In this document: positions 10,508 to 41,431 of the stretch, in pieces
Numbering within the stretch: the stretch's first letter is position 1
Layout of the letters: every line of letters starts with the position of its first letter
Assembly: GCF_000013725.1 (NCBI RefSeq)
Contig: NC_007955.1
Location: forward strand, 1,271,579 to 1,335,578
Origin: Methanococcoides burtonii DSM 6242
GTDB taxonomy: Archaea; Halobacteriota; Methanosarcinia; Methanosarcinales; Methanosarcinaceae
Direction: 5' to 3'
DNA length: 64,000 nucleotides
Notes under the pieces: generated by a model
Database searches by the model: none
What the model was told of the DNA's origin: nothing
What the model saw: only the letters and a program-made list of their open reading frames with translations
Made by a program: the position numbers and the translations under genes

Positions 10508-10517
10508 CTTATATAAA
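10508..10517 (+). promoter_or_regulatory. TATA box for the PHP hydrolase gene
   Basis: CTTATATAAA on the plus strand, about 110 bp upstream of the ATG at 10627. It predicts transcription starting near 10540 and an 85-base leader. The leader contains three near-tandem copies of TAATTCA at about 10580-10602. GGTGA at 10618-10622 is the ribosome binding site. Confidence 0.55.
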
Positions 10518-10626
10518 CATTGATAAGAATACTGTTCGTACACAAACGATTAATATGAACAGGACATTAAAAACAAAAATTAATTCATAATTCATAATTC
10601 ATACAATAAAAATTATAGGTGAGTAC

Positions 10627-11265: not shown

Positions 11266-11273
11266 AACGATTT

Positions 11274-11867: not shown

Positions 11868-11906
11868 ATCATCCACCTTAAATTTAGTAATAAAACGATC
11901 TTATGT

Positions 11907-12452
11907 TCAGTCAAGCCAGTCGAAGAACTTATCCAGCGCTCTTTTGCGATGAGACATCTTATTTTTCTCCTCGGCACCAAGCTCACCGAATGTATTTCCA
12001 TTATATTCGAAGATAGGATCATAGCCAAATCCACCACTTCCACGCTCCTCATGAGCTATCTCGCCTTCGACTGTACCAGTAAATGTCACAGGTTCCCCTC
12101 CGGGTTCGCAATAGCCTATGACCGACTTGAAAACAGCAGCCCGGTCAGACTCATCCCCCATGAGCTTTAAGACCTTCTGATTCCCAAGGTACTCTTCCAC
12201 GAATGCGGAATAAGGACCCGGAAAACCATTCAGTGCATTTATGAAAAGACCCGAGTCATCCACCATCACAGGATGTTTTAACTTTTCAGCACAGTATTTT
12301 GCACCATATGCAGCTATAGGTTCAAGTTCGTCTTCCTGAAGTTCAGGATAGCCATCCTTATTCTGAATAAGTTCAATGTCCTTGGCTGCAAGGATCTCTT
12401 TTGCCTCACCGAACTTACCTTTATTTCCTGTCACAAATACCATTTCACGCAT
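11907..12452 (-). CDS. rdgB: XTP/dITP diphosphatase (RdgB/HAM1)
   Basis: 181 aa from the ATG at 12452, preceded by GAGGGG; longer frames run into bud32. It removes deaminated purine nucleotides (ITP, XTP) from the pool. Signatures: FVTGNKGKFGEAKEIL at the N-terminus, VDDSGLFINALNGFPGPYSA, and RGSGGFGYDPIFEY. It overlaps bud32 by 8 bp. Confidence 0.94.
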   Translation of the reverse strand: MREMVFVTGNKGKFGEAKEILAAKDIELIQNKDGYPELQEDELEPIAAYGAKYCAEKLKHPVMVDDSGLFINALNGFPGPYSAFVEEYLGNQKVLKLMGDESDRAAVFKSVIGYCEPGGEPVTFTGTVEGEIAHEERGSGGFGYDPIFEYNGNTFGELGAEEKNKMSHRKRALDKFFDWLD

Positions 12453-13017
12453 AACGACCCCTCTTTTCAATCTCTTTAACTCTATCCAGCACTTCATCCG
12501 CCATATCAAGGGTTATCCTGTAACCACGACTGAATGCCTTTATCAATTCCTCATGATCCGAATGTGTGCTCTCAAGTGTCTGGAACAGAACATGGATGTC
12601 AACACCTCTCGATTCGACCGAACCATCCACATATGAAAGCCCGAAATCGATAAGGTAGATACGATCCCCGCTGTAAAGCATATTGGAAGTTGTCAGATCT
12701 CCATGGATGATACCACCACTGTGAAGCCTTCCGATAAGCTTGCCCATAAGTTTACAGATAGTTTCATCAATAACATATTTTACAGGCTTGCCATCAATAT
12801 ATTCCATTTCGATGGTAAAATCATAAATATCATGTATTATCGGAGTAGGTACTCCACAACGCCTCGCATCGGACATCAAGCGGGCTTCTGCACGCGTCCT
12901 TTCCTTGCGTATCCTCTCATCCAGTTCCGCAACCCTGTATCTTTTAGGGATACGGTCCTTGATGATATAACCATCTTTAAGGGAAACCACCGCTTCAGCT
13001 CCGCTTTGAAGATACAT
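12445..13017 (-). CDS. bud32: Bud32 (PRPK) kinase/ATPase of the KEOPS complex
   Basis: 190 aa. A small atypical kinase of the KEOPS complex, which makes N6-threonylcarbamoyladenosine in tRNA. Key motifs are IIHGDLTTSNMLYSGDRIY (catalytic loop) and LIDFGLSYVDGSVESRGVD. The ATG at 13017 shares its A with the kae1 TGA (TGATG) and has AGGAGGT six bases upstream; a GTG at 13020 is also in frame. In several archaea this domain is fused to Kae1; here a strong binding site and separate frames show two genes. Confidence 0.95.
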   Translation of the reverse strand: MYLQSGAEAVVSLKDGYIIKDRIPKRYRVAELDERIRKERTRAEARLMSDARRCGVPTPIIHDIYDFTIEMEYIDGKPVKYVIDETICKLMGKLIGRLHSGGIIHGDLTTSNMLYSGDRIYLIDFGLSYVDGSVESRGVDIHVLFQTLESTHSDHEELIKAFSRGYRITLDMADEVLDRVKEIEKRGRYA

Positions 13018-14024
13018 CACAGAACCTCCTTTTCATCAGCTATCCAGGTCACATCGACAGTATCCGGCCTGAAGCTCGGGTCCACATGAGAATTTTCAAT
13101 CGGTAAAGTGGTCCCTGAATTGAACATCAACAGACCTGTATAAGCTATCATGGCACCATTGTCACCCATGAAACGTCTTTCAGGCACATAGAAGCTCGCA
13201 CCTCTGTCCTCACACATGAGATCAAGCATTTCACGAAGTCGCATGTTCGCACCCACCCCTCCTGCAAGAAGCACTTCGCTCTTACCTGTATGGGCCAGTG
13301 CACGCTCCGTAACCTCCACAAGCATTGCAAAAGCATTCTCCTGGAAAGAATAACAGACATCTTCAAGGGAATTGTCCTTCAGCGCATCTGTGGCAGCCGT
13401 GGATAGCCCTGAAAATGAGAAATCCATACCCTTTACAACATATGGCATTTTCACATAATTCGTAGCTTTTCTGGCATACTCTTCCACCTTGGGACCACCG
13501 GGATGGGTCAGCCCTGCACCCCTTGCAAATTTATCAAGGGCATTCCCTATGCCGATATCAAGGGTTTCCCCGAATATCCTATACTTTCCAGCCCTGTGAG
13601 CAAGCACCTGCGAGTTCCCACCACTGACATACAGCACCACAGGATCAACTGCCGGTGTTTTCCAGCGTCCTATCTCAACATGTCCGATACAGTGGTTCAC
13701 ACCCACAAGCGGAATATCCAGCGACAATGCCAGTGCCCTTGCAGATGTCGCGACCGTCCTCAGACATGCCCCCAAACCCGGGCCCTGCGAAAACGCAATA
13801 GCATCGATATTTTCAGGGGAATGACCCTTATCCCTATATTCCTTCAGCAATCTTTCAATAACATCGGATGCATGCAAAGCATGATGTTGCGCAGCTTCCC
13901 TTGGATGAATACCTCCGGTTTTTGGCCGATATGTCTCAGTCACCTCTGCGATAACATCATCTTCGTCAACAATTGCTGCGCTTAAATTCCAGGCTGTGCC
14001 TTCTATACCGAGAACAGTTGTCAA
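13017..14024 (-). CDS. kae1: Kae1 / TsaD, catalytic subunit of KEOPS tRNA t6A synthesis
   Basis: 335 aa. It transfers the threonylcarbamoyl group to A37 of ANN-decoding tRNAs. The metal-binding AAQHHALHASDV motif (about residues 104-115), the nucleotide-binding LYVSGGNSQVLAHR and AGGVGANMRLREML segments, and the C-terminal MGDNGAMIAYTG are present. The start is a TTG at 14024 with GGAG nine bases upstream; no ATG is available. Other KEOPS subunits (Cgi121, Pcc1) are not in the window. Confidence 0.95.
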   Translation of the reverse strand: MTTVLGIEGTAWNLSAAIVDEDDVIAEVTETYRPKTGGIHPREAAQHHALHASDVIERLLKEYRDKGHSPENIDAIAFSQGPGLGACLRTVATSARALALSLDIPLVGVNHCIGHVEIGRWKTPAVDPVVLYVSGGNSQVLAHRAGKYRIFGETLDIGIGNALDKFARGAGLTHPGGPKVEEYARKATNYVKMPYVVKGMDFSFSGLSTAATDALKDNSLEDVCYSFQENAFAMLVEVTERALAHTGKSEVLLAGGVGANMRLREMLDLMCEDRGASFYVPERRFMGDNGAMIAYTGLLMFNSGTTLPIENSHVDPSFRPDTVDVTWIADEKEVL

Positions 14025-14140
14025 TAAATTAGTCTCCTTTTGAGAATAATGGTTTTTGTTTGTATTAGATTTAATGGATTACATATAACTTGTCATCCCA
14101 TTGAGAAACGTTTTAGTACTTAGCAAACCAATCCACACCC

Positions 14141-14404
14141 ATGGAAGAAAAGGAATCAACAGCAAAAAACCCTGACATAAAATCCAGGGAAATGCTCCAC
14201 ACTGTCGGGGAAACGAGCTTTGGAATTCACACACCACCATCCTTAAGCAATGAAATGCCTGCCCTTGATGGTATCGAATATATGCCACACAAGTCAGCAG
14301 GATTACAGTCCGCTTCTGACATGTGGATAGACAAAGCAAGGTTGACAAACAGCCTTCAGAACAAGCCTGTCATAGAGAAGATCCTGAAAGGCAGGACACT
14401 CTAA
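14141..14404 (+). CDS. Small hydrophilic protein, function unknown
   Basis: 87 aa, no recognised domain. The composition is protein-like (hydrophilic, with few cysteines and no long hydrophobic stretch), and the C-terminus is basic (EKILKGRTL). There is no Shine-Dalgarno, but ACATATAA at 14081-14088 could be a TATA box that gives a short leader. The antisense frame across the same stretch encodes a cysteine- and leucine-rich product that looks non-coding. T-rich sequence follows at 14410. Confidence 0.5.
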   Translation: MEEKESTAKNPDIKSREMLHTVGETSFGIHTPPSLSNEMPALDGIEYMPHKSAGLQSASDMWIDKARLTNSLQNKPVIEKILKGRTL

Positions 14405-14566
14405 AACCCCTACTTTTTTCTGATATATTCTTTGTTACATCTTTTTTAAGGGAAACTCATGCGGTAATAATACCGACAGAATAAGTTAGCTCTTCCTGAT
14501 CAGCATATATAAATGAAGTATAAGTGGATGAAAGCATAGAATTTCATCCAGTTAATATTACATCGA

Positions 14567-15643
14567 TCAGATAGTCTCCAGAAGTTCGTCCAAGGCAAGG
14601 GATGTATCGAACTGACTAACTCGCCCATCATCTGTCAGCGTAAATTTGCCCTGTGAAGCACCAGTAACCACAAAGTGTTCCGGACCAAGATCTTTGGTAT
14701 CAGTCCATGTGTCATTATTCAGATAAAGGAAAACCCTTTCCCCGAGAGAAAAAGAAGATTCATCCTCCACATCTATGGTAACATAATCGTCACTGCCACC
14801 CTGTATTCTAACTATGACTTCTTTTTTGGGTAATGGATTTTTGAGATAGCCATCCACACTGATAATGACATCAGTATAGAGAACATCATGCCAACCCAGA
14901 TCATAGATATCATCAGTTGGCCTCGTTCCATCAGCAGTGTTCCATTTACTTGGAAGTATCTCCTTGACCGTACCTATTAAAATTACATCAGACCGATCGC
15001 TCAGATCTTCATAGCTTAAGAATTCAAGAAGGGCACTGACCATGATGGTCTCTCCCACAAAAGCACCATCCATCTGTTCGGTTTCCTCAATGGGTAATTC
15101 CTTTTCTTTCACGACATCTATGGTGAAGTTATTGGATTCTGCCATGCCAATCCAATAAGGTTTTGTAATTGATTCACCCCTTGAAGTGTGATATACAGCA
15201 CTAAGTATATACTCACCATTATCCAAATTCCAACACTTTGAATTAAAGGTAGCATTAAGAGATTGACCAGGATGGAGTTCAACAAGAACATCATTATTTA
15301 ACCGCACTCTTGAATTAACTCCACATATATATGGCACATTAGAACCATTTGGAAATAAGAAATTAATATCATAACTCACTTGTTCTTCCATCTTCCACAC
15401 ATTGATAGTTTTGTTACCAACGTTTGTTAACATCAAGTGAATGTTGAAAGTTTCACCTTCCTGCACCTGTGTCTTTTCAGGCACCAGAATAAAATTCAAT
15501 TCACCGAATTCACCGATCTGTCGATCGGGTTCTTTTGAATCTACACATCCCCCTGCAAGCAACATTGAGCTAATTAAGAACAGTACGAGTATTATTTTGC
15601 TAATTTCTATATTGCTGAGATTTTTGATGTATTTAATTTTCAT
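14567..15643 (-). CDS. Secreted lipoprotein with N-terminal immunoglobulin-like domain
   Basis: 358 aa from the ATG at 15643 (TTAGGTGGGG immediately upstream; the GTG at 15649 lies inside the site). A signal peptide with lipobox MLLAGGC is followed by a beta-rich domain (about 40-170, LNFILVPEKTQVQEGETFNI) of the kind that mediates protein contacts outside the cell, and a second beta-rich region (about 200-350). The specific function is unknown. It is transcribed divergently from the HTH-regulator operon. Confidence 0.75.
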   Translation of the reverse strand: MKIKYIKNLSNIEISKIILVLFLISSMLLAGGCVDSKEPDRQIGEFGELNFILVPEKTQVQEGETFNIHLMLTNVGNKTINVWKMEEQVSYDINFLFPNGSNVPYICGVNSRVRLNNDVLVELHPGQSLNATFNSKCWNLDNGEYILSAVYHTSRGESITKPYWIGMAESNNFTIDVVKEKELPIEETEQMDGAFVGETIMVSALLEFLSYEDLSDRSDVILIGTVKEILPSKWNTADGTRPTDDIYDLGWHDVLYTDVIISVDGYLKNPLPKKEVIVRIQGGSDDYVTIDVEDESSFSLGERVFLYLNNDTWTDTKDLGPEHFVVTGASQGKFTLTDDGRVSQFDTSLALDELLETI

Positions 15644-29169: not shown

Positions 29170-32100
29170 TCAAACACCCTTTGTTATTTCATCGGTGATC
29201 AATTCCGCCTGCTTAAGCACTGTTTCTGTAGCGAGTGCTTGTAGATCCGGCGGATAGCCATATTGTCTTAATGTCCGTTTTACAATTACTTTTAATTTGG
29301 CCCTGACGCTTTCTTTAATCGTCCAGTCTATAGACGCGTTTTGTTTGATTTTATCAAATAAAACAACCGCTAGTTCCCGTAACTTCTCTTTTTGCATCAA
29401 TTCTCTTGCACTGTCATTATCTGCGATTGCTGTGTAAAACGCATATTCAAATTCAGACAAACCCATCTCTAAAGGTTCTTTGTCCATCCGTTTTATCTCT
29501 TTACTGAGTTCAATCAATTCTTCAATGACTTCAGCCGCAGTTATAACTTTGTTATGATATTTCTTGATGGAATCTTCCAGCATTTCCATTAATGATTTGC
29601 TTTGAACGAGGTTCTTCTTTACCCGGGCTTTTATTTCATCGTTGAGCAACTTTTTTAGAACTTCCAGAGCTATATTTTTGTGTTCCATGTTCTGGACTTC
29701 TAAAAGAAAATCTTCTGATAATATGGAAATGTCCGGTTTTTTAATTCCTGCGGCATCAAACACGTCTATCACTTGTTCAGTAACAAGGGCCTGATCGATA
29801 ACCTGTCTGATTGCAGTTTCAATCTCCTCGTCTGTTTTACCTGTTCCAGTGCTGTCAAATTTAACAAGTCTGGCTTTTATCGCTTGATAAAACGAGATTT
29901 CATCCTTCACATCCATTGCCTCCTCGTGTGGAATGGCTATGGAAAATGCTCTTGATAATGCAGTTACTTCATCGATGTACCTTTTTTTACCGTTTTCGAG
30001 ACCCAGAATATGTTCTTCTGCTGCAAGTATTATTGACAACTTCGTAGAAGTATCCGCTGCAAAGTAATGTTCGTAGGAAAATCCATGAAACATCTGGGAT
30101 ACGATCTCCAGTTTCTCCAGCATCAATTGAACTGCACTCTCCTGAAGGACAGCAGGATCGCCTTTCCCGCCGCTGTCAGAATAGAAAGACAAGGCTTCTT
30201 TCAGGTCAGAAGCTATTCCCAGATAATCAACAACCAGACTACCTGGTTTGTCTTTATAGACTCTGTTCACCCGCGCAATTGCCTGCATAAGGGTATGCCC
30301 TTTCATTGGCTTGTCAATGTACATCGTATGCAGACATGGAACATCAAAACCCGTTAGCCACATGTCCCGAACGATGACCAGTTTCAATTCGTCTTCCGGG
30401 TCTTTCATCCGTTCTGCTAAAGCTCTTCTCTGCTCTTTTGTCGTATGATGTTTTGATATTTTGGGCCCGTCAGAAGATGCAGAGGTCATCACAATCTTGA
30501 TTTCGCCTTTTTTAAAGTCATCGTTGTGCCATTGCGGCTTGATCTTGATAATTTCATCGTACAGGTCAGCGGCTATCCTTCGTGACATTGCAACGATCAT
30601 TCCCTTGCCTTCGAACACTTCCTTTCTTTGCTCGAAATGAGTTACAATATCCTGTGCGATCTGCCTTATTCGGCCTTCACTGCCGATCAAGGCTTCCAGT
30701 TGTGTCCATTTAGCTTTGGCTTTCTGGGTTTCTGCAAGATTTTCTTTTTCCAGTTCTTCATCCAGTTCTGAGACCAGTTTTTTACCTTCCTTGCTGAGAA
30801 TGATTTTTGCCAACCTGCTTTCGTAATAGATTTTTACCGTGGCGCCGTCCTCAACAGCCTGGGATATATCATAAATGTCAACATAATTGCCAAAAACAGC
30901 AGGCGTGTTCACGTCTGTTTTTTCTATTGGCGTACCGGTGAAACCCAGGTAAGTTGCGTTGGGCAGGGCGTCGCGTGTGTATTTCGCAAAACCGTAAACG
31001 ATCTTTTGACCGATTACGTTTCCCTGTTCATCCTTGATATCAATGGTTTTTGCCTTGAAGCCGTATTGTGTCCGGTGGGCTTCGTCAGCTATCACAATGA
31101 TATTTCTCCTGTCCGATAGTTTCGGGTAAACGTTCCCTTCTTCGGGCTGGAATTTCTGGATGGTGGTAAATACCACGCCACCCGATGCAACGTTTAGCAG
31201 TTCTTTCAAATGCCCCCTGTTTTCTGCCTGCACAGGTTCCTGCCTGAGAAGTTGCTTTGAAGCGGCAAAGGTATCAAAAAGCTGGTCGTCCAGGTCGTTT
31301 CTGTCAGTGATCACAACTACGGTGGGGTTATCCATTGCCAGGACGATCTTACCGGTGTAGAAAACCATGGAAAGGGATTTACCACTTCCCTGTGTATGCC
31401 AGACCACGCCGCCTTTTCTGTCTCCAATGGGTTGTTCTGTCACCCCGGGCAAGCCATAACTTTCGGGACTCTCATGATGTAGACCGAAAATTTGCCAGTC
31501 TTTCGCCGCAGCATAACCCGATGCCCTGAGTGTCGATTCTACCGCCCGGTTAACGGCATAGTACTGATGATAGGTAGCGAGTTTCTTTACAGTCTGAATA
31601 GTTATAATGCCGGTTGTCCTGTCTTCCTTTTTCGATTTTTCAAATACAATGAAATGCCGGACAAGATCCAAGAGAGTTGTTTTATTCAGCATCCCGTTAA
31701 TGAGTGTTTCCAACTGACCAATTAAAGGCGAGGCTTCAACCGTGCCGTCTGAGCTTTTCCATGCCATAAAACGGCTGAAACCAGCGGAAAGAGAACCTGA
31801 TTTTGCCTCCAGACCATCGGAGATGACCATGAAACCATTATAGGCAAACAAAGATGAAATTGCCTGTTTGTAGGTCTGCAACTGTCTGAATGCAGATCTT
31901 ACGGTTGCGTTCTCGTCAGCAGGGTTTTTCAGCTCGATAACCACCAGGGGCAGACCGTTAACAAAAAGGATGATATCAGGCCGTTTGTTCACATTATTTT
32001 CAATGACAGTGAATTGATTGGTGACAAGAAATTCGTTGTTTTCAGGATCGTTAAAATCTACGAGCCAGACCAGATCGCCCCTGTCGGCTCCGTCTTTCTG

Positions 32101-32394
32101 ATAACTTACCTTTATGCCCTCGGTAAGCATCCTGTGAAATGCCTCGTTGTTGGCGATAAGTTCAGGCGAATTAAGGCGCTGTATCTGCCTGATGGCGTCC
32201 TCCCGCGCATCTGCCGGAATAGTGGGATTGATCCTGCCAATGGATTTTCGCAGGCGCTCTGATAATAGTACATCTTCAAACCGTTCCCGTTCCGGAGTGT
32301 CGCTATCCGGGGTAATGTCCGGGGCATAGATATACTGGTAGCCCTGATGTTCGAGGAGTTCGATGGCGAATTCCTCAATGGCGGATTCGGTCAT
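29170..32394 (-). CDS. hsdR: Type I restriction enzyme, R subunit
   Basis: 1074 aa from the ATG at 32394 (MTESAIEEFAIELLEHQGYQ), with GGGTGA eleven bases upstream; an in-frame extension to 32562 overlaps the 3' end of rhuM in another frame and is not protein-like. The nuclease motif is PDIILFVNGLPLVVIELKNP (about residues 136-155). Translocase motifs are VWHTQGSGKSLSMVF, VVVITDRNDLDDQLF, IIVIADEAHRTQYG, LGFTGTPIEK and MQAIARVNRVYKDKPG. The C-terminal helical region binds the methylase complex. With HsdM and HsdS it cuts unmodified foreign DNA after ATP-driven translocation. Confidence 0.95.
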   Translation of the reverse strand: MTESAIEEFAIELLEHQGYQYIYAPDITPDSDTPERERFEDVLLSERLRKSIGRINPTIPADAREDAIRQIQRLNSPELIANNEAFHRMLTEGIKVSYQKDGADRGDLVWLVDFNDPENNEFLVTNQFTVIENNVNKRPDIILFVNGLPLVVIELKNPADENATVRSAFRQLQTYKQAISSLFAYNGFMVISDGLEAKSGSLSAGFSRFMAWKSSDGTVEASPLIGQLETLINGMLNKTTLLDLVRHFIVFEKSKKEDRTTGIITIQTVKKLATYHQYYAVNRAVESTLRASGYAAAKDWQIFGLHHESPESYGLPGVTEQPIGDRKGGVVWHTQGSGKSLSMVFYTGKIVLAMDNPTVVVITDRNDLDDQLFDTFAASKQLLRQEPVQAENRGHLKELLNVASGGVVFTTIQKFQPEEGNVYPKLSDRRNIIVIADEAHRTQYGFKAKTIDIKDEQGNVIGQKIVYGFAKYTRDALPNATYLGFTGTPIEKTDVNTPAVFGNYVDIYDISQAVEDGATVKIYYESRLAKIILSKEGKKLVSELDEELEKENLAETQKAKAKWTQLEALIGSEGRIRQIAQDIVTHFEQRKEVFEGKGMIVAMSRRIAADLYDEIIKIKPQWHNDDFKKGEIKIVMTSASSDGPKISKHHTTKEQRRALAERMKDPEDELKLVIVRDMWLTGFDVPCLHTMYIDKPMKGHTLMQAIARVNRVYKDKPGSLVVDYLGIASDLKEALSFYSDSGGKGDPAVLQESAVQLMLEKLEIVSQMFHGFSYEHYFAADTSTKLSIILAAEEHILGLENGKKRYIDEVTALSRAFSIAIPHEEAMDVKDEISFYQAIKARLVKFDSTGTGKTDEEIETAIRQVIDQALVTEQVIDVFDAAGIKKPDISILSEDFLLEVQNMEHKNIALEVLKKLLNDEIKARVKKNLVQSKSLMEMLEDSIKKYHNKVITAAEVIEELIELSKEIKRMDKEPLEMGLSEFEYAFYTAIADNDSARELMQKEKLRELAVVLFDKIKQNASIDWTIKESVRAKLKVIVKRTLRQYGYPPDLQALATETVLKQAELITDEITKGV

Positions 32395-32395
32395 T

Positions 32396-33424
32396 TTATT
32401 TGTAGTCACCCTTAGCCTCCATAATGCGCCGTACCTCTTTGTCAAAATCAGAAATATAATTTTTATCCTGAATTTTCTTGAATACTTCATATTCTTTGCT
32501 GACCAGAGCCAGAGCAACTTCATGACTGATCTGCCCGGCATTGGTAAGTATTTCGTATTCACTGAACTTCAGGAAGGCATTCAGTTTTCCAATCCAGTCT
32601 TTCATGTACATTGGCTTATTACGAATCGCCTGTAATTCCGCATGATCAAGGTACATGGTGACTATGCGATTCAAATGATCAAGTTCTGTTTTATCCAGAT
32701 AGTTTTTTGCTATGGCAACATCACCTGGCATGATTTTACCGTCAGGTCCCTTTCGCCATGATGTCAATCCCATATTTTGCTTATCACTTCTGGCTCGCGT
32801 GTTTATAATTTCCGCGGCGGTCTGTCCGGTAATGGCAAAGTGGAGTTTGTTCTGTACCACTGCAAAGAATTTTTGTGTGTCCTGTGCTTTTGGGGAATAG
32901 TCAATGGAAGTGGCATAAATATCGGTAATTTTCTGATACAACATCCGCTCACTGGAACGGATATCCCGAATTTCTTCGAGTAAGTCATCAAAATAGCGTG
33001 TGCTGAAACGGGAACCATACTTGAAACGGTCGCTGTCTATTGCAAAGCCTTTGTGGATATATTGCTGAAGAATTGAAATTGCCCATTGCCTGAACTGTAT
33101 GCCGCGTTCTGAGTTAACCCTATAACCCACCGCTATAATGGCTTCAAGCGAATAGCACTTTACGGTACGTGTAACTTCGCGATCACCTTCAATTTGAACT
33201 ACCGAGAGATCCTCGGCAGTTGCCGATTCATCAAGTTCCTTCTCTTTGTAGATATTTTTAAGGTGCAAAGAGATATTATCCGCGCTGCATCCGAATAGCT
33301 CTGCTATTCGTTTTTGTGGCAGCCAGATGTTTTCATCGGCATAGAGTACTTCAATATTGATTTTCCCATCCGATGTTTGATAGACTGTAATTTGGTTGTC
33401 GGGTATTTTTTTATTTGTAGTCAT
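32396..33424 (-). CDS. RhuM-family protein, copy 1
   Basis: 342 aa from the ATG at 33424, preceded by AAGGAGG; overlaps the other copy by 14 bp. The N-terminal half contains DENIWLPQKRIAELFGCSAD, an HTH-like segment, followed by VGYRVNSERGIQFRQWAISI; a C-terminal DUF-like region follows. RhuM proteins commonly accompany type I R-M genes; their biochemical role is not established. It stops 1 bp before hsdR. The last 49 bp of shared sequence (32422-32470) are identical to copy 2. Confidence 0.85.
   Translation of the reverse strand: MTTNKKIPDNQITVYQTSDGKINIEVLYADENIWLPQKRIAELFGCSADNISLHLKNIYKEKELDESATAEDLSVVQIEGDREVTRTVKCYSLEAIIAVGYRVNSERGIQFRQWAISILQQYIHKGFAIDSDRFKYGSRFSTRYFDDLLEEIRDIRSSERMLYQKITDIYATSIDYSPKAQDTQKFFAVVQNKLHFAITGQTAAEIINTRARSDKQNMGLTSWRKGPDGKIMPGDVAIAKNYLDKTELDHLNRIVTMYLDHAELQAIRNKPMYMKDWIGKLNAFLKFSEYEILTNAGQISHEVALALVSKEYEVFKKIQDKNYISDFDKEVRRIMEAKGDYK
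32422..32470 (-). repeat. 49-bp perfect direct repeat, copy A
   Basis: Identical to 33437-33485. It encodes the shared tail KNYISDFDKEVRRI of the two RhuM paralogs. The genes are otherwise clearly diverged, so the block suggests recent recombination or gene conversion at the 3' end. Confidence 0.9.
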
Positions 33425-34445
33425 GTTTACCCTCCTTAATGCGCCGTACCTCTTTGTCAAAATCAGAAATATAATTTTTATCCTGGGTTACACGATATTC
33501 TTCGTATTCCTGCTCAGCTTTCAGCTTTGCTTCCAGTCCACTGACTTTACCTTTGTCATTTAGTATCGGGTAGCTGGATAATTCCAGAAAGCTATGGAGA
33601 AATTTACTCCAGTCCTGCATTTTCATAAGGATATGGCGTTGTGCCCGGTTTTCCGCCAGATCGAGATATGCGGAGATAATCTGGTTCAGTTCCCTGATAT
33701 GGGCTTCTCCCAGGTAATTCTTAGCAATTGAAACATCGGATTTCATTATTTTCCCGTCAGGTGCTTGTTTCCAGTTTGTCAAACCCATGTGGATCTTTGT
33801 TGCATCTGCGGAATCATAAATAATCTCTGCCGCCGTTTTCCCGGTGATTGCCCAGTGGAGTTTGTTCTGAACCGAAGCAAAGAACTCCTTTGTTACCGGT
33901 GCGTTTTTATCATAATCTGCGGAAAGGGCGTAGATGTCAGTGATCTTCTGGTAAAAACGCCGCTCGCTTGCACGGATTTCCCTGATCCGCTCAAGCAGTT
34001 CCTCGAAATAATCTTTGCCAAAAACCTGATTGCCCTGTTTCAGTCGCTCATCATCCAAAACAAAACCCTTGATGATGTATTCTTTCAGTATTTTGGTTGC
34101 CCAGATGCGAAATTGGGTTGCCTGATAGGAGTTTACGCGGTAGCCAACTGAAATGACGGCATCGAGGTTGTAGTATTCTAAATCTCTTTCTACTTGCCTC
34201 GATCCTTCCGCTTGAACTGTTCGGAAATTCCGAACAGTTGAATCCATCTGCAATTCCTCTTCTGCATATATTTTTTTAATATGCTCGCTAATTGTCGCTT
34301 TTGACTTTCCAAACAGCTTACCGATTGCTTTCTGTGTCAGCCAGATGTTTTCATCCTTCAATACAACTTCTACCTTTACGTTCCCGTCATTTGAAGTGTA
34401 GAGAATAAAATCGGATTGGTTTTCGGAAAGGTGGTTGTTATTCAT
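33411..34445 (-). CDS. RhuM-family protein, copy 2
   Basis: 344 aa. Its architecture is the same as the neighbour's: DENIWLTQKAIGKLFGKSKA (HTH-like), VGYRVNSYQATQFRIWATKI, IREIRASERRFYQKITDIYA and a tail KNYISDFDKEVRRIKEGK. The two copies are diverged but alignable over their whole length. The ATG at 34445 has GGAG ten bases upstream. Directly upstream lies a relic of an hsdR 5' end, so this gene seems to have been inserted, with its paralog, at the start of an ancestral hsdR. Confidence 0.85.
   Translation of the reverse strand: MNNNHLSENQSDFILYTSNDGNVKVEVVLKDENIWLTQKAIGKLFGKSKATISEHIKKIYAEEELQMDSTVRNFRTVQAEGSRQVERDLEYYNLDAVISVGYRVNSYQATQFRIWATKILKEYIIKGFVLDDERLKQGNQVFGKDYFEELLERIREIRASERRFYQKITDIYALSADYDKNAPVTKEFFASVQNKLHWAITGKTAAEIIYDSADATKIHMGLTNWKQAPDGKIMKSDVSIAKNYLGEAHIRELNQIISAYLDLAENRAQRHILMKMQDWSKFLHSFLELSSYPILNDKGKVSGLEAKLKAEQEYEEYRVTQDKNYISDFDKEVRRIKEGKHDYK
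33437..33485 (-). repeat. 49-bp perfect direct repeat, copy B
   Basis: Second copy of the repeat at 32422-32470, spaced 1015 bp, i.e. about one gene length. Confidence 0.9.
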
Positions 34446-34478
34446 GACCGGTTAGCTCCGCATAGTTTGATGGGGAAA

Positions 34479-34548
34479 GTGTGGATGTATTGGTAGCCTG
34501 ATTTTTGTGGAGTTCGATGGCGAACTTTTTTATTTGGTTTTCGGTAAT
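34479..34548 (-). pseudogene. Relic of an hsdR 5' end
   Basis: The minus strand reads ITENQIKKFAIELHKN and, after a frame change, SGYQYIHTFP. This matches the true HsdR N-terminus MTESAIEEFAIELLEHQGYQYIYAPD in order and spacing. The start codon is ATT and the frame is broken, so it is not functional. It lies between the soluble Kiwa-like partner gene and rhuM copy 2. Confidence 0.75.
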
Positions 34549-34551
34549 AGA

Positions 34552-35376
34552 TTAGTCATTGGGTAGTTTCAATATAGAGTTTGCCAGCCTTTTTTCATTG
34601 CCTAGCGGGGTTGTGTAATATCTCTGCTCAATACCGTACAATATTTTTTTAAGATGGTCCTCTGTGCTAACAAAAAAAGTGTCACCATCAACCGGAACAT
34701 CTTCGCAATAGGATCGTATATATTGAAAAATTTGCTGTTTGTCATCTTGTGTGAATTGGTTTATTGTATCGATTACCATTGCTATTCGTTTTCGATTGGC
34801 TGTTTTCACATTGTTGCTAGTAAATGTTTCCTCAAGAGAAATGAAGCCATGCTCCAGAAAAGCATCAACTTCGGCTTGAGTGGCTTCTCGGTAGAGCACC
34901 TCAATACCTTTGAACATTGACTTAACTGTGGCAATATTCCTAAAATAAAGACTGTCGCCGTTTATGTCGTAAACAGCATCAACAAAACTATTGAGAATTA
35001 TAATAGGCTTATCGATTTCAAGTTTTGGTGCGCCTGAAATGTAAAACCATTTTTTATTTAATAAACGAGTTGGAGACATCTTCTGAAAAAGATAGAAATC
35101 ACCTTGTTTACTACATAAGTAATTGATTTTAGAATACTGTTGTTCAGTTATTTGATTATAATCTGTGCTATTGAAGGTTTTTCCTATCAAGATATTCTCA
35201 TAACCACGACTTAAAAACTTGTCTAATTTATACCATTCGCCATCTTCCAACTTATACGATGGCGAATATGCTTGGCTATCGGAGAAGTCAGGCATATCAA
35301 ATACACCTCTTTTATCGGACATGACTTTGAAGAAACCTGCATTCCGATCTTTTGTTTTTGCTAGTAAATGATTCAT
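34552..35376 (-). CDS. Soluble partner of the membrane protein upstream; resembles KwaB (DUF4868)
   Basis: 274 aa, no membrane segment. N-terminal mixed alpha/beta part, a central QGDFYLFQKMSPTRLLNKKW and IIILNSFVDAVYDINGDSLY followed by FRNIATVKSMFKGIEVLYRE, and a helical C-terminus. This succession (protein reports on itself as a strand, aspartate, strand, then a helix beginning near F) resembles what I know of DUF4868, the KwaB component of the Kiwa anti-phage system, but I cannot align it here. It overlaps the membrane-protein gene by 4 bp (ATGA). Alternative: an unrelated R-M accessory protein. Confidence 0.5.
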   Translation of the reverse strand: MNHLLAKTKDRNAGFFKVMSDKRGVFDMPDFSDSQAYSPSYKLEDGEWYKLDKFLSRGYENILIGKTFNSTDYNQITEQQYSKINYLCSKQGDFYLFQKMSPTRLLNKKWFYISGAPKLEIDKPIIILNSFVDAVYDINGDSLYFRNIATVKSMFKGIEVLYREATQAEVDAFLEHGFISLEETFTSNNVKTANRKRIAMVIDTINQFTQDDKQQIFQYIRSYCEDVPVDGDTFFVSTEDHLKKILYGIEQRYYTTPLGNEKRLANSILKLPND

Positions 35377-35927
35377 GGTACCTGCCTTTCCATATCCATA
35401 AATGTATAATTATTGATGCGTCTTAGATTATTAAATACCACATTATTAGGCTCTTTAAGTTGCCTTCGTGTTATTAATAAAACTTTGATATTCTTATTAT
35501 TTACGATGTAATAAAAGTTGAATCCAAACAAGAAAAATATCGGATTAAAATAAGAAATTCGAGAATAGAAAATAAAAACGCAGATTATCGTGAAAACATA
35601 AAAAAACACCTCAATGTTTGGTACGCTTAACGCAACAAAAAAATAACCTAAATAACTTGGTAAAAATGCGTCATTGGCAGGTTCAATAACAGATATTGAA
35701 CCTTCGTCTATCTCGTCTGTGTCTAACGTGTTAGTAAGCTGCATACTTAGCCACGTGAAAATTAAAATTACTAAAAAATATAAAATATAAGTGATGATAT
35801 TTGGCAAGTTTGAGATGTAAGGATGTAAAGAGTTTATGACAATCTCTTCTTTAACAAGAAACACCATCAATGAAAGTAATAGTGAGTTTAATGTCAAAAC
35901 AAATTTGAAAATATGTTCCATCACCAT
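35373..35927 (-). CDS. Four-helix membrane protein; resembles KwaA
   Basis: 184 aa with hydrophobic segments at about residues 5-25 (FKFVLTLNSLLLSLMVFLV), 40-62 (PNIITYILYFLVILIFTWLS), 90-105, and 106-145 (VFFYVFTIICVFIFYSRISY and FNPIFFLFGFNFYYIV). An acidic loop DTDEIDEGS lies after the second segment, and a basic tail follows the fourth. The start overlaps the hsdS stop, with GGTGG upstream. Topology, size and coupling to the next gene fit KwaA of Kiwa; sequence identity is not verified. Confidence 0.55.
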   Translation of the reverse strand: MVMEHIFKFVLTLNSLLLSLMVFLVKEEIVINSLHPYISNLPNIITYILYFLVILIFTWLSMQLTNTLDTDEIDEGSISVIEPANDAFLPSYLGYFFVALSVPNIEVFFYVFTIICVFIFYSRISYFNPIFFLFGFNFYYIVNNKNIKVLLITRRQLKEPNNVVFNNLRRINNYTFMDMERQVP

Positions 35928-36976
35928 TCCACCACCCCATATTCAACTCTGGCTTCTCCACTCATTAATTTAGACAACAGTGTATCCCGCAGTTTTTCGA
36001 GGGTGCGGATTTGTTTATTGTTCTTATCAATTTTATTAAACCAGGTATCTGCTTGATAAACAAACGGTTCAATTCGATGTTCCGGTGGTAGGATAATCTG
36101 TATAGATTTAAGTAAATTTTGTGTTAACAGTGGATGGCTTGATCCTTCTGCGATTTCATTTAGTTGCAAGCTTTTCAACAGGAAGAACAAAAAGCTTGAA
36201 TGTTCTTTGTTGATTGGTTTTGCAACCAAAGCATTATCAGATATCCATACTGGATTGCGCTCTATGTATAAACTTCCGCAATACGCCCCGACTCTTCCAA
36301 TGATAACTGTAACACCTTCATTGTTTGATTTGTCAGAATATCCTAAAATGCCGTTTCCACCATAAATAGGAATATTTCCTTCGATGATGTCATCAGGTCT
36401 TTTTTTGCCATTATGAAAAGAAGCAACATCGCCCAGTGTGCCTTCCTCCCACCCCTCATCCGCCTCCTCCTCAAACCACTGCCTGAACAGCGTTTCTGCC
36501 ATGGCTTCGAGGGTCTTGTTCTGACGGTGGAGCAGGTCTATCTTGTCGTCGAGGCTGGAAAGGACTGAGGCGATAGCGCGCTGTTCGGGGAGAGGGGGAA
36601 GGAGGATGTCCTGTGAGTAAGCAGTATTGCGATTTAATCTAGGAACTGCACTATCCTCATTAAGTTCTTCAAGCCCAATTGTTTTTAATAAATAATAAAT
36701 AAAATTTAAATAATATTTCGTTTCTTCAGGTAAAATATAATAAGCGGTATCAATGCAAAAAAAAGGGGTTTTTGAATAATATATTTTACCAACAGTTCCC
36801 TTTCGCCCAATAATTAATCCTTCAGAATTTACTAATGTTTCATTATGATAACCTGTTAAGCCAGCAGAACTATAAACAGGGATTTTACCTTCAACTCTTT
36901 TTCGTTCCGGTAAGCTTTTCCCATAATTCAAAACCAACACATCCCCCAATTTACATTTCTTCCACTTACCTGTCAC
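35921..36976 (-). CDS. hsdS: Type I restriction-modification specificity subunit
   Basis: 351 aa. Two target-recognition domains: the first about 5-130 (CKLGDVLVLNYGKSLPERKR), the second about 178-310 (GTLGDVASFHNGKKRPDDII). Each is followed by a conserved helix: PLPEQRAIASVLSSLDDKID and later IRTLEKLRDTLLSKLMSGEA. It recognises a bipartite DNA sequence and docks two HsdM subunits. The start is a GTG at 36976, whose GGAGG binding site belongs to the ORF6N relic upstream, the same context as at the DUF1016 gene start. Confidence 0.95.
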   Translation of the reverse strand: MTGKWKKCKLGDVLVLNYGKSLPERKRVEGKIPVYSSAGLTGYHNETLVNSEGLIIGRKGTVGKIYYSKTPFFCIDTAYYILPEETKYYLNFIYYLLKTIGLEELNEDSAVPRLNRNTAYSQDILLPPLPEQRAIASVLSSLDDKIDLLHRQNKTLEAMAETLFRQWFEEEADEGWEEGTLGDVASFHNGKKRPDDIIEGNIPIYGGNGILGYSDKSNNEGVTVIIGRVGAYCGSLYIERNPVWISDNALVAKPINKEHSSFLFFLLKSLQLNEIAEGSSHPLLTQNLLKSIQIILPPEHRIEPFVYQADTWFNKIDKNNKQIRTLEKLRDTLLSKLMSGEARVEYGVVEW

Positions 36977-37060
36977 TCACATCCCCTCCAGCCTTATGAG
37001 CATCTCAATCGTCCCGATATCCATTTTTGAGAACGCGACCACTCCTTTTTGACCCGTCAC
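36977..37060 (-). pseudogene. Relic of an ORF6N-gene 3' end
   Basis: A 27-codon frame starts at a GTG that overlaps the DUF1016 stop (GTGA) and reads through VVAFSKMDIGTIEMLIRLEG. It is a close copy of the tail WFAFSKMDIGAVEMLTRLEG of the ORF6N-type gene at 38199. It supplies the ribosome binding site of hsdS, which may be why it persists. It suggests a lost gene between DUF1016 and hsdS, or a duplication of the junction. Confidence 0.75.
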
Positions 37061-38202
37061 GATTCCTCCAATCCACTCAATTCCGCCTCAATCTCTTCAA
37101 TGCTTGGCAGAGAAGATTTGAACTCATCCGGCAGGTTTTTGGTGATTATGTATTCACTCACCCCGATCGGTTTATGAACATCCTTCAGGGAATATTCCAC
37201 CACCGTATCATTTTTTGATTTACAAATGAGAATGCCGATAGTAGTGTCATCCTGTTCTGATTTTAAAATTTCATCCACGGCTGATATATAAAAATTAAGT
37301 TTACCGGCAAATTCCGGTTTAAATTTGACCGCCTTTAGTTCCACCACCACATAACAATGCAGTTTGACATGGTAAAACAGCAGATCAATAAAAAACTCAT
37401 CCCCGGAAACTTCGAGCTTGTATTGTTTTCCCAGGTAAGAAAAACCAGCTCCCAATTCTAATAGAAAATGGGTTACATGGTTTATCAGAGCATCTTCCAG
37501 CTCTTTTTCATTGTGCTTTTCTGTTAATGTCAGAAAATCAAAATTGTAGGGGTCTTTCAAGGTTTCTATTGCTAAGTCTGACTGAGGTTCGGGTAATGTT
37601 GCCTTAAAATTGGTTATAGCTTTACCTTCACGCTTGAACAGATTACTTTCAATATGATGGGTCAGAACAGATCTTGACCAGTTGTTTTGAATGGTTTTTT
37701 GGATATAGAATAAAGCTTCATTCAAGTTTTTGCACTTGGAGATAATGACAATATTGTGCCCCCATGGAACCTGTGTTAATTGGGCAACAGCTTGTTGCTC
37801 AAATGACTTTTCTGACTGCAAAAGAGATTTTGATGAATTTTGGCCAACAGCCTGTTGGCTTTTTTCAAATTCTCGGGAATAAAACAAATACCACTGTTTG
37901 ATATACTTTAGATTACTTAACGAAAATCCTTTCGTATCAGGGAACTCTGACGATAAATCTATACTAAGCTGCTTTAGAAAACCAGCGCCCCATTTAGTAT
38001 TCTTTTGTTTATTTACAATATCCTGCCCCAACTCCCAATAAAACTGCAATAACTCGGAATTAACTTTAACTGCCGCTTTTATCTGAACCAATCTAACTTT
38101 ATTCTTCAGCTCATTTAACCAGACAGAATAATCCTTATCTTTGATTAAGGAGGGATTCATACCAGTTTCAGCTTCTTCAAGTTTTCTTAAATCATTCGTC
38201 AC
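37057..38202 (-). CDS. DUF1016 (YhcG-type) PD-(D/E)XK nuclease-like protein
   Basis: 381 aa. The N-terminal DUF1016 region (LVQIKAAVKVNSELLQFYWE, then LGQDIVNKQKNTKWGAGFL) precedes a C-terminal PD-(D/E)XK fold: GDEFFIDLLFYHVKLHCYVV, then VELKAVKFKPEFAGKLNFY. The D and E-x-K of the active site are in place. Such proteins are frequent in R-M loci and are thought to be nucleases with a defence role. The start is a GTG at 38202 that overlaps the ORF6N stop, with GGAGG upstream. Confidence 0.88.
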   Translation of the reverse strand: MTNDLRKLEEAETGMNPSLIKDKDYSVWLNELKNKVRLVQIKAAVKVNSELLQFYWELGQDIVNKQKNTKWGAGFLKQLSIDLSSEFPDTKGFSLSNLKYIKQWYLFYSREFEKSQQAVGQNSSKSLLQSEKSFEQQAVAQLTQVPWGHNIVIISKCKNLNEALFYIQKTIQNNWSRSVLTHHIESNLFKREGKAITNFKATLPEPQSDLAIETLKDPYNFDFLTLTEKHNEKELEDALINHVTHFLLELGAGFSYLGKQYKLEVSGDEFFIDLLFYHVKLHCYVVVELKAVKFKPEFAGKLNFYISAVDEILKSEQDDTTIGILICKSKNDTVVEYSLKDVHKPIGVSEYIITKNLPDEFKSSLPSIEEIEAELSGLEES

Positions 38203-38633
38203 TTCATCCCCTCCAGCCTCGTAAGCATCTCAACCGCTCCGATATCCATCTTCGAGAACGCAAACCATTTCTTTCCGAGGTCCTTCAGGGAAGCACCGAA
38301 ATGATAGACTGTGGTATTGTCAATGATTATAAATCGGTCATGGGAGTTCCTGAATTGCTTAATCTCTATGGCGTTCAATATCTTGTCCATCTTTGTATCG
38401 GTTTCCAGTTGTTCTATTTCAAGAGCCTCAAGCCGTTGAAAGACCTGTGCGTTTGAGGCGATAAAGCGACGCATGGCGACAAAGGCGTTGATTATCTGAA
38501 TGCTCATCTTTACAGCGGTTTCGTTTCGAAAACCAGCTGACAGCATTGCAACTCCCTGTTCCGTGAATACACAGGGTTTCGTTCGTCTTCCACTCATACC
38601 CGCTTCACCTTTTGGCCTATTGATCGTTTGCAC
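38199..38633 (-). pseudogene. N-terminally truncated ORF6N-type gene
   Basis: Up to 144 aa (a likely start is the ATG at 38597). KPCVFTEQGVAMLSAGFRNE, then VKMSIQIINAFVAMRRFIAS, match the second half of ORF6N DNA-binding proteins. The conserved first half (about 80-90 residues with the motif around DLA..Y.V.TK) is missing. The following coiled region ends in SKMDIGAVEMLTRLEGMK. It may be translated as a short form that keeps coupling to DUF1016, but the DNA-binding part is lost. An in-frame TGA lies just upstream. Confidence 0.7.
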
Positions 38634-38805: not shown

Positions 38806-39882
38806 TCACTTCTTTAATATGTCATACAGCCCCTTATTTTTGAAGATAAACTCGTTCCCCACCTTCTCTTTTTCAAGTATATCGATTTCTACCAGTCGAT
38901 TCAGATATTTGCTTGCGGTGTTTCTCGATGCTATTCCCTTTTCTACAAGGAAGGCATATTTGCAATAGACCTGCGTGAACAAGGTCTCAAGCAATTCGAA
39001 GCTGTAAATATCCGGCACTTCACCCTGCATCTTCTCTTTCGTATCGTTGAACAATTCGATTATGGTCAATACCTTGTCAAGGGTATATTTTGAAGTTTCT
39101 TCTATGGCTTTAAGCATAAAGAGTATCCACTCTTCCCAGCTGTTGTTTTCGGTTACACCCATTAATAGCCTGTAATAATCGTTCTTGTTTTCATTGATGT
39201 ATTTCGAGAGGTACAGGATAGGATCATCCAGCAGATCGTATGCAGAGAGTAGCAATACATTGATTACCCTGCCCGCTCTCCCGTTGCCGTCTTTAAACGG
39301 ATGGATTACTTCAAACTGGTAGTGCAGGATTGCCATTTTGATAAGCGGGTCTATCTCATCGGATTTAGAGTTGGCAACCGAGATCCAATTATTCAACTTA
39401 TCTAAAATCACATCCCTGCAACATGGAGGCGTGTAAATTCTTCTATAATCATTTCCGATATAAACGGGAAAATCACGAATGCCATCATTTTCCTCCTTTA
39501 TATTTCTATAAATAAGCTCTATGAGTTCAACTGAAAACGTATTTCCGGATTTTATAACTCCAAATCCATCTACCAATGCCTTCCCGTATCTCAACACCTC
39601 TTTTGTATGTGGATCTGCCGTTGAATCGAGGGTGAAGGCTTTGAACAATTTATCATTGGTTGTGAAAACATTCTCAATGGATGAACTGTCCTTCGCCTCC
39701 TGTAAACTCAAAGTATTAATGAATATGTCCGGGTTCGGGATCGCTGAGAGTCTCCCCTTCAATTCCGCCATTGCCCTATTTGCTTTATTGGCCTGCTCAT
39801 AAATACTTAACAGACGCCAATACCTCTCATCAGGTAATATATCTGGTAATTCATTATATGGATTGTCCGGGTTAAATTTCAT
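38806..39882 (-). CDS. Fic-domain protein (AMP transferase-like) with inhibitory helix and C-terminal winged helix
   Basis: 358 aa. The Fic motif [12 protein letters not shown] is complete (about residues 195-206). An N-terminal inhibitory motif [10 protein letters not shown] (about 68-77; S-x-x-x-E-N) indicates a class II, self-inhibited Fic enzyme. About 290-355 is a winged helix ([20 protein letters not shown]). Fic proteins attach AMP to hydroxyl groups of target proteins. It overlaps hsdM by 11 bp with GGAGGGGG upstream. Regulation of R-M or toxin-like activity is possible; the target is unknown. Confidence 0.92.
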
Positions 39883-41431
39883 TATCCCCCTCCATTTTAA
39901 TCTTTGACAAATTCTCCAGAATCTGACTGTTCAGCTGTTCTTCCTCTTTCAACTGCCCCTCAAACTCCGCTTTCAGCCCGGTAAACCGCTCATTAAAATC
40001 GAAATCATCTTCCTCCACAGGCAACCCCACATATCGCCCTGGTGTCACCACATAATCAAGTTCATGCACCCTCTCAATTGAGGTGGAATTGCAGAATCCC
40101 TTCACATCTTCATAATTGCCGTCTGGGTTGCGCCAGTTGTGGTAGGTATCTGCAACCTTTTGTATATCTTCCGGCGAGAATTCACGGGTCCGGCGGTTTA
40201 TCAGGTGCCCCATGTTCCGCGCGTCGATGAACAGAATCTCATCTGTTCTGTTCCTGTATTTGCCATTGGCTTTGTTTCTGCTGAGAAACCAGAGGCTGGC
40301 CGGGATCTGAGTATTCAGGAACAGTTTTGGCGGAAGGTTTACGATACAGTCCACCATTCGAGATTCCACAAGTTCTTTTCTGATATCACCCTCACCGGAC
40401 GATTTAGAGGTCAAAGATCCTTTGGCCAGAACAAAACCTGCCTGACCATTTGGACTTAAATGATAGAGAAAGTGCTGAATCCAGGCATAGTTGGCGTTTC
40501 CGGCAGGCGGAACACCATATTTCCACCTGCCATCCTTGCGCAGCAGATCGCCACTCCAGTCGCTGTCGTTGAACGGAGGATTGGCTATGACATAATCCGC
40601 TTTCAAATCTTTATGGCTATCGTTCAGGAAGGAGCCTTCATTATTCCATTTAACCTGTGAACTATCAATACCACGAATGGCGAGGTTCATTTTTGCCAGC
40701 CGCCAGGTGGTCTGGTTGCTCTCCTGTCCGTAAATCGATATGTCGTTTACTTTGCCTCGATGGTCGGCAACAAACTTCTCTGACTGCACAAACATACCAC
40801 CAGAACCACAGCAGGGGTCAAAGACCCGGCCATTGTAGGGTTCCAGCATCTCTACCAACAATTCAACTACGCTTCTTGGTGTGTAGAACTGTCCTCCCCT
40901 TTTGCCTTCTGCCAGAGCAAATTCACCAAGGAAATACTCGAAAACATGACCGAGAATATCAGCACTTCTGGCTTTGGCATCACCAAGAGCAATGTTACTT
41001 ACCAGATCGATCAAACCGCCAAGACTTGTGGGGTCGAGATTGCCTCGTGCAAAGACTTTTGGCAAAACTCCCTTGAGCAAGGGATTCTCTCTTTCTATTG
41101 CGTCCATAGCCCTATCAACATCTTTACCGATTTCTGGCTGTTTGGCTTTTGATTGCAGATATGACCAGCGGGCAATCGCAGGAACAAAAAAGACATTTTC
41201 AGCTTTGTACTCGTCCCTGTCTTCAGGATCAGCACCGGTATAATCTCCATCTCCTTTTTGCAGTTTTTGATATAATTCCTCAAAGGAATCAGAGATATAT
41301 TTTAGGAAAATCAAGCCCAAGACTATATGTTTGTACTCAGCAGCATCAATGTTTTTTCTGAGTTTATCCGCCGCTTTCCACAATTGCTTTTCAATAGTTT
41401 CATCTTGAGTTTTATTGTTATTCTTTGCCAT
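39872..41431 (-). CDS. hsdM: Type I restriction-modification DNA methylase subunit
   Basis: 519 aa, the first gene of the R-M operon. An N-terminal helical domain ([20 protein letters not shown]) precedes the methylase fold with [20 protein letters not shown] (motif I) and [13 protein letters not shown] (motif IV, adenine-N6). It methylates host sites with HsdS. A TATA-like AAGTATATCG lies about 50 bp upstream on the minus strand. Confidence 0.96.

What the first reader, a model, noticed from the sequence alone, without database searches (positions are those of the whole stretch)
34552..35927. Kiwa-like two-gene module embedded inside a type I R-M operon
Between hsdS and the rhuM genes lie a four-helix membrane protein and a soluble protein, coupled by 4-bp overlaps to hsdS and to each other. 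Membrane protein plus DUF4868-like partner is the layout of the Kiwa anti-phage system (KwaA/KwaB). Its insertion into an hsd operon would make a composite defence unit in an archaeon: membrane sensing together with restriction. I could not align the proteins, so it could equally be an undescribed pair.
Basis: inference. Interest (0 to 1): 0.8.

Follow-up and report, generated by a model that had tools for sequence, protein, structure and literature searches.

The report
Kiwa pair inside restriction operon
In a methane-producing archaeon, a two-gene antiviral system called Kiwa (a membrane protein and its partner) sits inside the operon of a DNA-cutting restriction system, and related microbes carry and swap the same pair at the same spot, so two kinds of antiviral defence are probably made together.

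Summary
The two ORFs are real, overlap each other by 4 bp (ATGA) and follow hsdS directly. They are a diverged KwaA/KwaB pair: PADLOC profiles match over most of their length (KwaA E 1e-12, KwaB E 7e-15), and in a PDB fold search the only significant hits of each model are solved KwaA and KwaB chains. The embedding is not a one-off. In all eight archaeal genomes where I found the pair it lies between hsdS and hsdR (seven intact loci, one on a contig edge with hsd scars), in three unrelated type I families. Neisseria gonorrhoeae has hsdS-kwaA-kwaB-hsdM, and one IMG/VR contig has hsdMSR-kwaAB. Other bacterial copies are unlinked. The hsdS-hsdR gap is a cargo slot: sister operons carry SIR2, GmrSD, RhuM or nothing there. 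Synonymous divergence shows kwaAB moved between operons independently of hsdM/hsdR, with a breakpoint in the conserved hsdS tail and an hsdR-start remnant beside kwaB. Best reading: a functional Kiwa carried as exchangeable, co-expressed cargo of a type I R-M operon, akin in position to PrrC. Functional coupling to restriction is plausible but unproven.

The parts
35373..35927 (-). kwaA: 184-aa four-helix membrane protein (sensor subunit of Kiwa)
   Evidence: PADLOC KwaA PDLC00216 E 1.1e-12, residues 4-180 on profile 3-172/173; fold search: the six best PDB hits are all solved KwaA chains (9mrg, 9mrx, 9mrr), E 4.8e-4 to 7.3e-3, next hit E 2.7
34552..35376 (-). kwaB: 274-aa DUF4868-type effector subunit of Kiwa
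   Evidence: PADLOC KwaB PDLC00222 E 6.6e-15, residues 34-267 on profile 46-287/292; fold search: the six best hits are all solved KwaB chains (9nyu, 9mtn, 9mrx_D), E 4.4e-7 to 5.7e-6
35921..36976 (-). hsdS, type I specificity subunit, directly upstream of and overlapping kwaA; its conserved 3' tail is a recombination point in relatives
   Evidence: Pfam Methylase_S E 4.7e-40; breakpoint analysis
34446..34551 (-). remnant of an hsdR 5' end (ITENQIKKFAIELHKNQ, then frameshifted GYQYIHTF) between kwaB and rhuM: scar of an earlier kwaB-hsdR junction
   Evidence: translation and comparison with the hsdR start, and with matching remnants in L002, L034 and L040
33411..34445 (-). rhuM (second cargo), PDC-S05 / Virulence_RhuM
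   Evidence: Pfam PF13310 E 6.4e-115
32396..33460 (-). rhuM, diverged second rhuM (cargo)
   Evidence: Pfam PF13310 E 3.6e-105
29170..32475 (-). hsdR, type I restriction subunit (the listed ORF extends to 32562; likely start near 32475 or a little downstream)
   Evidence: Pfam T1RH-like_C, SWI2_SNF2 and HSDR_N
39872..41431 (-). hsdM, type I methyltransferase subunit
   Evidence: Pfam N6_Mtase E 1.2e-109, HsdM_N
37057..38202 (-). YhcG/DUF1016 PDDEXK nuclease, cargo between hsdM and hsdS
   Evidence: Pfam YhcG_C E 6.5e-66
38806..39882 (-). SoFic-type Fic protein, cargo between hsdM and hsdS
   Evidence: PADLOC SoFic E 4.5e-99

Best explanation
The pair is a genuine, sequence-diverged Kiwa system (KwaA membrane sensor, KwaB effector) carried as an exchangeable cargo cassette in the hsdS-hsdR slot of an intact type I R-M operon. 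It has no intergenic promoter space of its own: kwaA overlaps hsdS and kwaB overlaps kwaA, so Kiwa is probably made from the hsd transcript by translational coupling (inferred). It most likely acts as studied Kiwa does: KwaA multimers in the membrane respond to the disturbance caused by an entering virus or plasmid, and KwaB dimers bind the entering DNA and block its replication and late transcription, while HsdRMS cuts the same DNA if unmodified (inferred from homology). The cassette spreads between hsd operons by recombination that uses the conserved hsdS 3' tail on one side and hsdR/rhuM sequence on the other (shown by divergence patterns and scars).
For: PADLOC profiles. A bridge: the KwaB proteins of G023/G193 match PDLC00222 at 5e-59/4.5e-60 and weakly reach other KwaB models. 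PDB fold hits exclusively to solved KwaA and KwaB. Recurrence between hsdS and hsdR in G177, G197, G617, G647, G023 and G193, between hsdS and hsdM in N. gonorrhoeae, and after hsdR in a viral contig. Other or no cargo in the same slot of sister operons. Exchange: KwaA/KwaB dS 0.04/0.07 between G177 and G197 against 0.78/0.56 for HsdM/HsdR; 0.38/0.28 between window and G617 while HsdM/HsdR synonymous sites are saturated. Breakpoint about 100 nt upstream of kwaA in the conserved hsdS tail. hsdR-start scars. Purifying selection.
Against: No transcription or virus-challenge data. KwaB is far from any solved KwaB in sequence (11-13% identity in the structural alignment) and the low TM (about 0.37) reflects a moderate model (pLDDT 76). 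RecBCD, a known partner of E. coli Kiwa, is absent here by RecC search, so part of the E. coli mechanism cannot apply. Many bacterial copies of the same subfamily are not linked to hsd (L003, L005, L006, L007, L009, L020, L021, L031), so linkage is not required for function.
Confidence: 0.82

Rival explanations
1. Guard or backup: as with PrrC in EcoprrI, Kiwa is placed with type I R-M because it covers the failure of restriction. A viral DNA-mimic antirestriction protein (Ocr/ArdA type) that blocks HsdMS would be shared with, or would trigger, Kiwa, just as Gam is partitioned between RecBCD and KwaB in E. coli (Gam part from memory of Zhang et al. 2025, not held in the library).
For: Same slot logic as prrC embedded in a type I operon and activated when the R-M enzyme is inhibited (PMC3874165, PMC12707154, PMC3506569). 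Type I enzymes are the main target of DNA mimics (PMC3874165). Several unrelated hsd operons have acquired Kiwa next to hsdS.
Against: PrrC is invariably hsd-linked (PMC3874168), whereas nearly half of the KwaAB loci of this subfamily seen here are not. No direct evidence of contact between KwaB and Hsd subunits.
Confidence: 0.22
2. Physical coupling: KwaA tethers or recruits the HsdMS(R) complex to the membrane at entry sites, so HsdR supplies the DNA degradation that RecBCD supplies alongside Kiwa in E. coli.
For: kwaA follows hsdS, not hsdM or hsdR, in both embedded gene orders seen (M-S-AB-R and R-S-AB-M). RecC absent from this genome with E. coli as positive control.
Against: HsdS sequences next to KwaA are highly diverse (29-47% identity among the four related operons) and kwaAB is exchanged freely between them, which argues against a specific HsdS-KwaA interface. 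One locus has kwaAB after hsdR.
Confidence: 0.1
3. Passive passenger: the hsd slot is merely a tolerant, expressed landing site; Kiwa there has no working relation to restriction and may be non-functional in this archaeon.
For: The slot also holds SIR2, GmrSD, RhuM, PIN, Mrr and unknown genes, or nothing; clustering of defence genes can be non-adaptive (discussed in PMC3506569).
Against: Non-function is contradicted by dN/dS of 0.12-0.33 and open frames in all eight archaeal genomes. Independence from restriction is not contradicted.
Confidence: 0.35
4. An undescribed membrane/soluble pair unrelated to Kiwa.
For: No Pfam or NCBIfam hit; phmmer and family-profile searches of PDB sequences find nothing.
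Against: PADLOC KwaA and KwaB models hit each partner in the right order; fold search returns only KwaA or KwaB as significant.
Confidence: 0.03

Closest known systems
Kiwa (KwaA/KwaB; Doron 2018; Zhang et al., Cell 2025; PDB 9mrr, 9mrg, 9mrx, 9nyu, 9mtn)
   Same: Two genes in the same order, four-helix membrane protein followed by a DUF4868-type protein; profile matches over most of the length; fold hits only to Kiwa structures
   Different: About 15-22% (KwaA) and 11-13% (KwaB) identity to solved members in structural alignments; archaeal host without RecC; embedded behind and overlapping with hsdS
PrrC in the type IC operon EcoprrI
   Same: A second antiviral gene embedded in a type I R-M operon
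   Different: PrrC is one soluble anticodon nuclease held inactive by the Hsd complex; KwaAB is a membrane sensor plus DNA-binding effector and no silencing by Hsd is known
Restriction-linked ORFs (rlo genes) of Campylobacter jejuni type I loci
   Same: Variable cargo genes inserted in hsd loci
   Different: Different gene families (RloC is a PrrC relative); Kiwa is not among those named in the papers read here

Membership tests
Kiwa | KwaA: small membrane protein of the KwaA family | tested here: met
   PADLOC PDLC00216 1.1e-12, PDLC00221 6.4e-11, PDLC00210 1.7e-6; fold hits 9mrg, 9mrx and 9mrr only
Kiwa | KwaB: DUF4868 domain protein | tested here: met
   PADLOC KwaB 6.6e-15 (four models); fold hits 9nyu, 9mtn and 9mrx_D only. 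Pfam itself gave no DUF4868 hit
Kiwa | kwaA and kwaB adjacent, same strand, kwaA first | tested here: met
   4-bp overlap in the window; same order and near-contact in all 17 other loci in which both genes were found
Kiwa | KwaA tetramer binding KwaB dimers in a membrane lattice | not testable with these tools
   Needs biochemistry or complex prediction; only monomers were predicted
Kiwa | Protection from phage or plasmid | not testable with these tools
Kiwa | Functional relation with RecBCD (E. coli Kiwa; a feature of one host's Kiwa rather than of the family) | tested here: not met
   RecC absent from the genome, present in the E. coli control
PrrC-type hsd-embedded guard | Gene inside an intact type I operon next to hsdS | tested here: met
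   hsdM, hsdS and hsdR with expected domains; kwaA overlaps hsdS
PrrC-type hsd-embedded guard | Anticodon nuclease held latent by the Hsd complex | tested here: not met
   No PrrC/RloC domain in either protein; so not a PrrC member, though it could work like a guard

The most novel reading that the evidence does not exclude
Kiwa and type I restriction form one functional unit in these operons: Kiwa guards the R-M enzyme against DNA-mimic antirestriction proteins, or brings it to viral entry sites, with HsdR taking the part that RecBCD plays beside Kiwa in E. coli. This would explain why unrelated hsd operons in archaea and Neisseria each took up kwaAB directly behind hsdS.
Probability: 0.25. 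Interest if true: 0.85.

Novelty: new variant of a known kind. Interest (0 to 1): 0.62.

Why it matters
It shows that Kiwa, known as a stand-alone gene pair, is repeatedly plugged into type I R-M operons, the same kind of place that holds PrrC. The cassette carries visible recombination scars, so it gives a concrete route by which defence genes are stacked and swapped inside an operon. It also makes a testable case for cooperation between membrane sensing and restriction in a host without RecBCD, and gives an archaeal Kiwa subfamily for structure work.

Tried and rejected
Pfam, NCBIfam and PHROGs on the two proteins gave no informative family (only an uncharacterised PHROG for KwaA). phmmer and alignment-profile searches of PDB sequences found nothing, so sequence alone does not reach the solved Kiwa. 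L002 was first taken as a stand-alone copy; rejected when an hsdR-start remnant and a RhuM start were found behind kwaB and an hsdS-tail-like stretch before kwaA. The idea that the slot is specific for this pair was rejected: it is a general cargo site, and bacterial copies of the pair occur elsewhere. A tree test for clustering of the hsd label on the KwaB tree is not significant (121 of 500 shuffles as low), which fits repeated gain and loss. The Kiwa Cell paper is not held, so a report of hsd linkage there cannot be excluded; paper searches found none.

Full report
WHAT WAS CLAIMED.

OBSERVATION. The ORFs are there. kwaB starts inside the kwaA stop (ATGA, 35373-35376). The operon is hsdM - SoFic - Rha fragment - YhcG nuclease - hsdS - kwaA - kwaB - rhuM - rhuM - hsdR, all on the minus strand, with hsdM, hsdS and hsdR carrying their expected domains. 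The window lies in a single-contig 2,575,032-bp genome; G624, which holds the contig of a named Methanoperedenaceae archaeon, is listed as same order, so the host is an archaeon. From memory the size equals that of Methanococcoides burtonii DSM 6242.

IDENTITY. Pfam and NCBIfam are silent, but PADLOC calls the membrane protein KwaA (E 1.1e-12, profile 3-172 of 173) and its partner KwaB (E 6.6e-15, profile 46-287 of 292), in the right order and over most of both models. More distant archaeal copies bridge to the rest of the family: KwaB of G023 and G193 scores 5e-59 and 4.5e-60 on the same model and weakly reaches several others, and their KwaA proteins match 13 or more KwaA models. AlphaFold models from 11-row alignments (KwaA pLDDT 83, KwaB 76) were compared with the PDB. 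For KwaA the six best hits are all cryo-EM KwaA chains (9mrg, 9mrx, 9mrr; E 5e-4 to 7e-3, probability 0.98-1.00; next hit E 2.7). For KwaB the six best are all KwaB chains (9nyu, 9mtn, 9mrx_D; E 4e-7 to 6e-6; next hit E 0.05). TM-scores are modest (0.32-0.54), as expected from a shallow alignment and flexible domains, but nothing else is significant. Two independent proteins each returning only their own Kiwa partner settles the identity.

RECURRENCE. A KwaB profile found the pair in 5 of 393 Halobacteriota-level (phylum) genomes, 6 of 238 of the window's class and 2 of 232 of the class of G023: eight archaeal genomes in all, so it is rare. Seven of the eight have kwaAB between hsdS and hsdR: the window, G177, G197, G617, G647, G023 and G193 (HsdS and HsdR domains confirmed for divergent ones). 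These represent three type I families: HsdM 74-94% identical within the window group, about 46% to G647 and about 28% to G023/G193. G647 shows the simplest layout, hsdM-hsdS-kwaA-kwaB-hsdR, with kwaB and hsdR almost touching. The eighth, G624/L002, lies on a contig end, but kwaB is followed by a remnant of an hsdR start and then a rhuM start, and kwaA is preceded by a stretch resembling the end of hsdS. In bacteria, Neisseria gonorrhoeae has hsdR - rhuM fragment - hsdS - kwaA (8-bp overlap) - kwaB - hsdM, and an IMG/VR contig has hsdM-hsdS-hsdR-kwaA-kwaB. Other copies (Persicobacter, Sphingobium, Roseivivax, two lactobacilli, E. coli 55989, two prophage-like contigs) show no type I genes in the stretches read. 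On the KwaB tree the hsd-linked state needs five changes, at least two forced by well supported branches.

THE SLOT. In operons with an HsdR 84-91% identical to the window's, the hsdS-hsdR gap is empty (G631, G120), or holds rhuM (G647 second locus, G406), HATPase + GmrSD + rhuM + PIN pair (G192), an unknown 277-aa gene + rhuM (G422) or an unknown 340-aa gene (G334). Less related operons hold SIR2-like genes (G597, G032) or Mrr/DUF4357 genes (G639). So the gap is a general cargo site for defence genes, and Kiwa is one of its cargoes.

HOW THE CASSETTE MOVES. Between G177 and G197, kwaA and kwaB differ at dS 0.04 and 0.07 while hsdM and hsdR differ at 0.78 and 0.56. Between the window and G617, kwaA and kwaB differ at 0.38 and 0.28 while hsdM and hsdR synonymous sites are saturated (pS above 0.8). 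kwaAB has therefore been exchanged between operons apart from hsdM and hsdR. In the G177/G197 alignment identity rises from about 40-50% to over 90% some 100 nt before kwaA, in the conserved 3' tail of hsdS, and falls again about 1,650-1,700 nt downstream, in the rhuM region. In the window the 106 nt between kwaB and rhuM are a frameshifted hsdR beginning; in G617 the same place holds an hsdR beginning fused to an hsdS end; in G422 a different cargo gene is followed by the same hsdR'/'hsdS fusion and then rhuM. The simplest reading is that two cassettes, hsdS-kwaAB-hsdR and hsdS-rhuM-hsdR, were joined by recombination, leaving the scar. dN/dS of 0.12-0.33 for the more diverged pairs shows that both proteins are kept functional (the near-identical pair G177/G197 is too close to use).

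HOW IT PROBABLY WORKS. Shown: identity, embedding, overlaps, exchange, purifying selection. Inferred: co-expression from the hsd transcript; a KwaA membrane assembly sensing infection and KwaB binding entering DNA without cutting it (Kiwa mechanism as summarised in PMC12904381); and parallel cutting by HsdR. E. coli Kiwa is linked to RecBCD (PMC11514479 citing Todeschini et al.); RecC is absent here while the E. coli control is positive, so if a nuclease partner is needed it must be another one, and the adjacent type I enzyme is a candidate. The precedent for a second defence inside an hsd operon is PrrC (PMC3874165, PMC12707154, PMC3506569), whose activity is released when the R-M enzyme is inhibited; rlo genes of Campylobacter are another (PMC2610378). 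A guard role for Kiwa is therefore reasonable but not shown; the free exchange of kwaAB between very different HsdS proteins argues against a tight HsdS-KwaA contact.

NOVELTY. Kiwa is known; a diverged archaeal Kiwa is a new member of it. The recurrent embedding directly behind hsdS, the cassette exchange and the scars were not found in any paper searched here, with the caveat that the main Kiwa paper could not be read.

Noticed in passing
L040 (G422:C7) about 5440-5760, and L034 (G617) 9844-9957: Non-coding hsdR-start fused to hsdS-tail scars between two cargo genes; suggests that defence cargo is stacked in type I operons by recombination between whole cassettes.
   Followed up: partly
L018 (G193) 10288-14820 and L017 (G023) 9013-9697: Between kwaB and hsdR these operons carry further cargo (AlbA-like ORF; in G193 also a P-loop ATPase ORF resembling RloA), named from the sequence only.
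   Followed up: no
L008 155-1051 (Shigella flexneri small plasmid; also E. coli 101EVA plasmid): A KwaB relative (about 26% identity) with no annotated KwaA beside it on a 4.2-kb plasmid and no PADLOC hit; possibly a solo KwaB-like protein.
   Followed up: partly
L021 10721-12114 (E. coli 55989; matches in 22 E. coli genomes): An unlinked KwaAB pair of this subfamily inside a T6SS-containing island, annotated as hypothetical proteins (KwaB as 'ATP F0F1 synthase synthase' in some strains).
   Followed up: partly
window 38199-38633: Truncated Rha/ORF6N-type protein between SoFic and YhcG; sister operons have longer versions (about 294-308 aa), so it looks like a decayed cargo gene.
   Followed up: partly
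window 32396-34445: Tandem rhuM genes whose reading frames overlap by about 50 bp, with the end of one rhuM repeated before the next gene; the hsdR ORF likewise extends out of frame into rhuM.
   Followed up: partly
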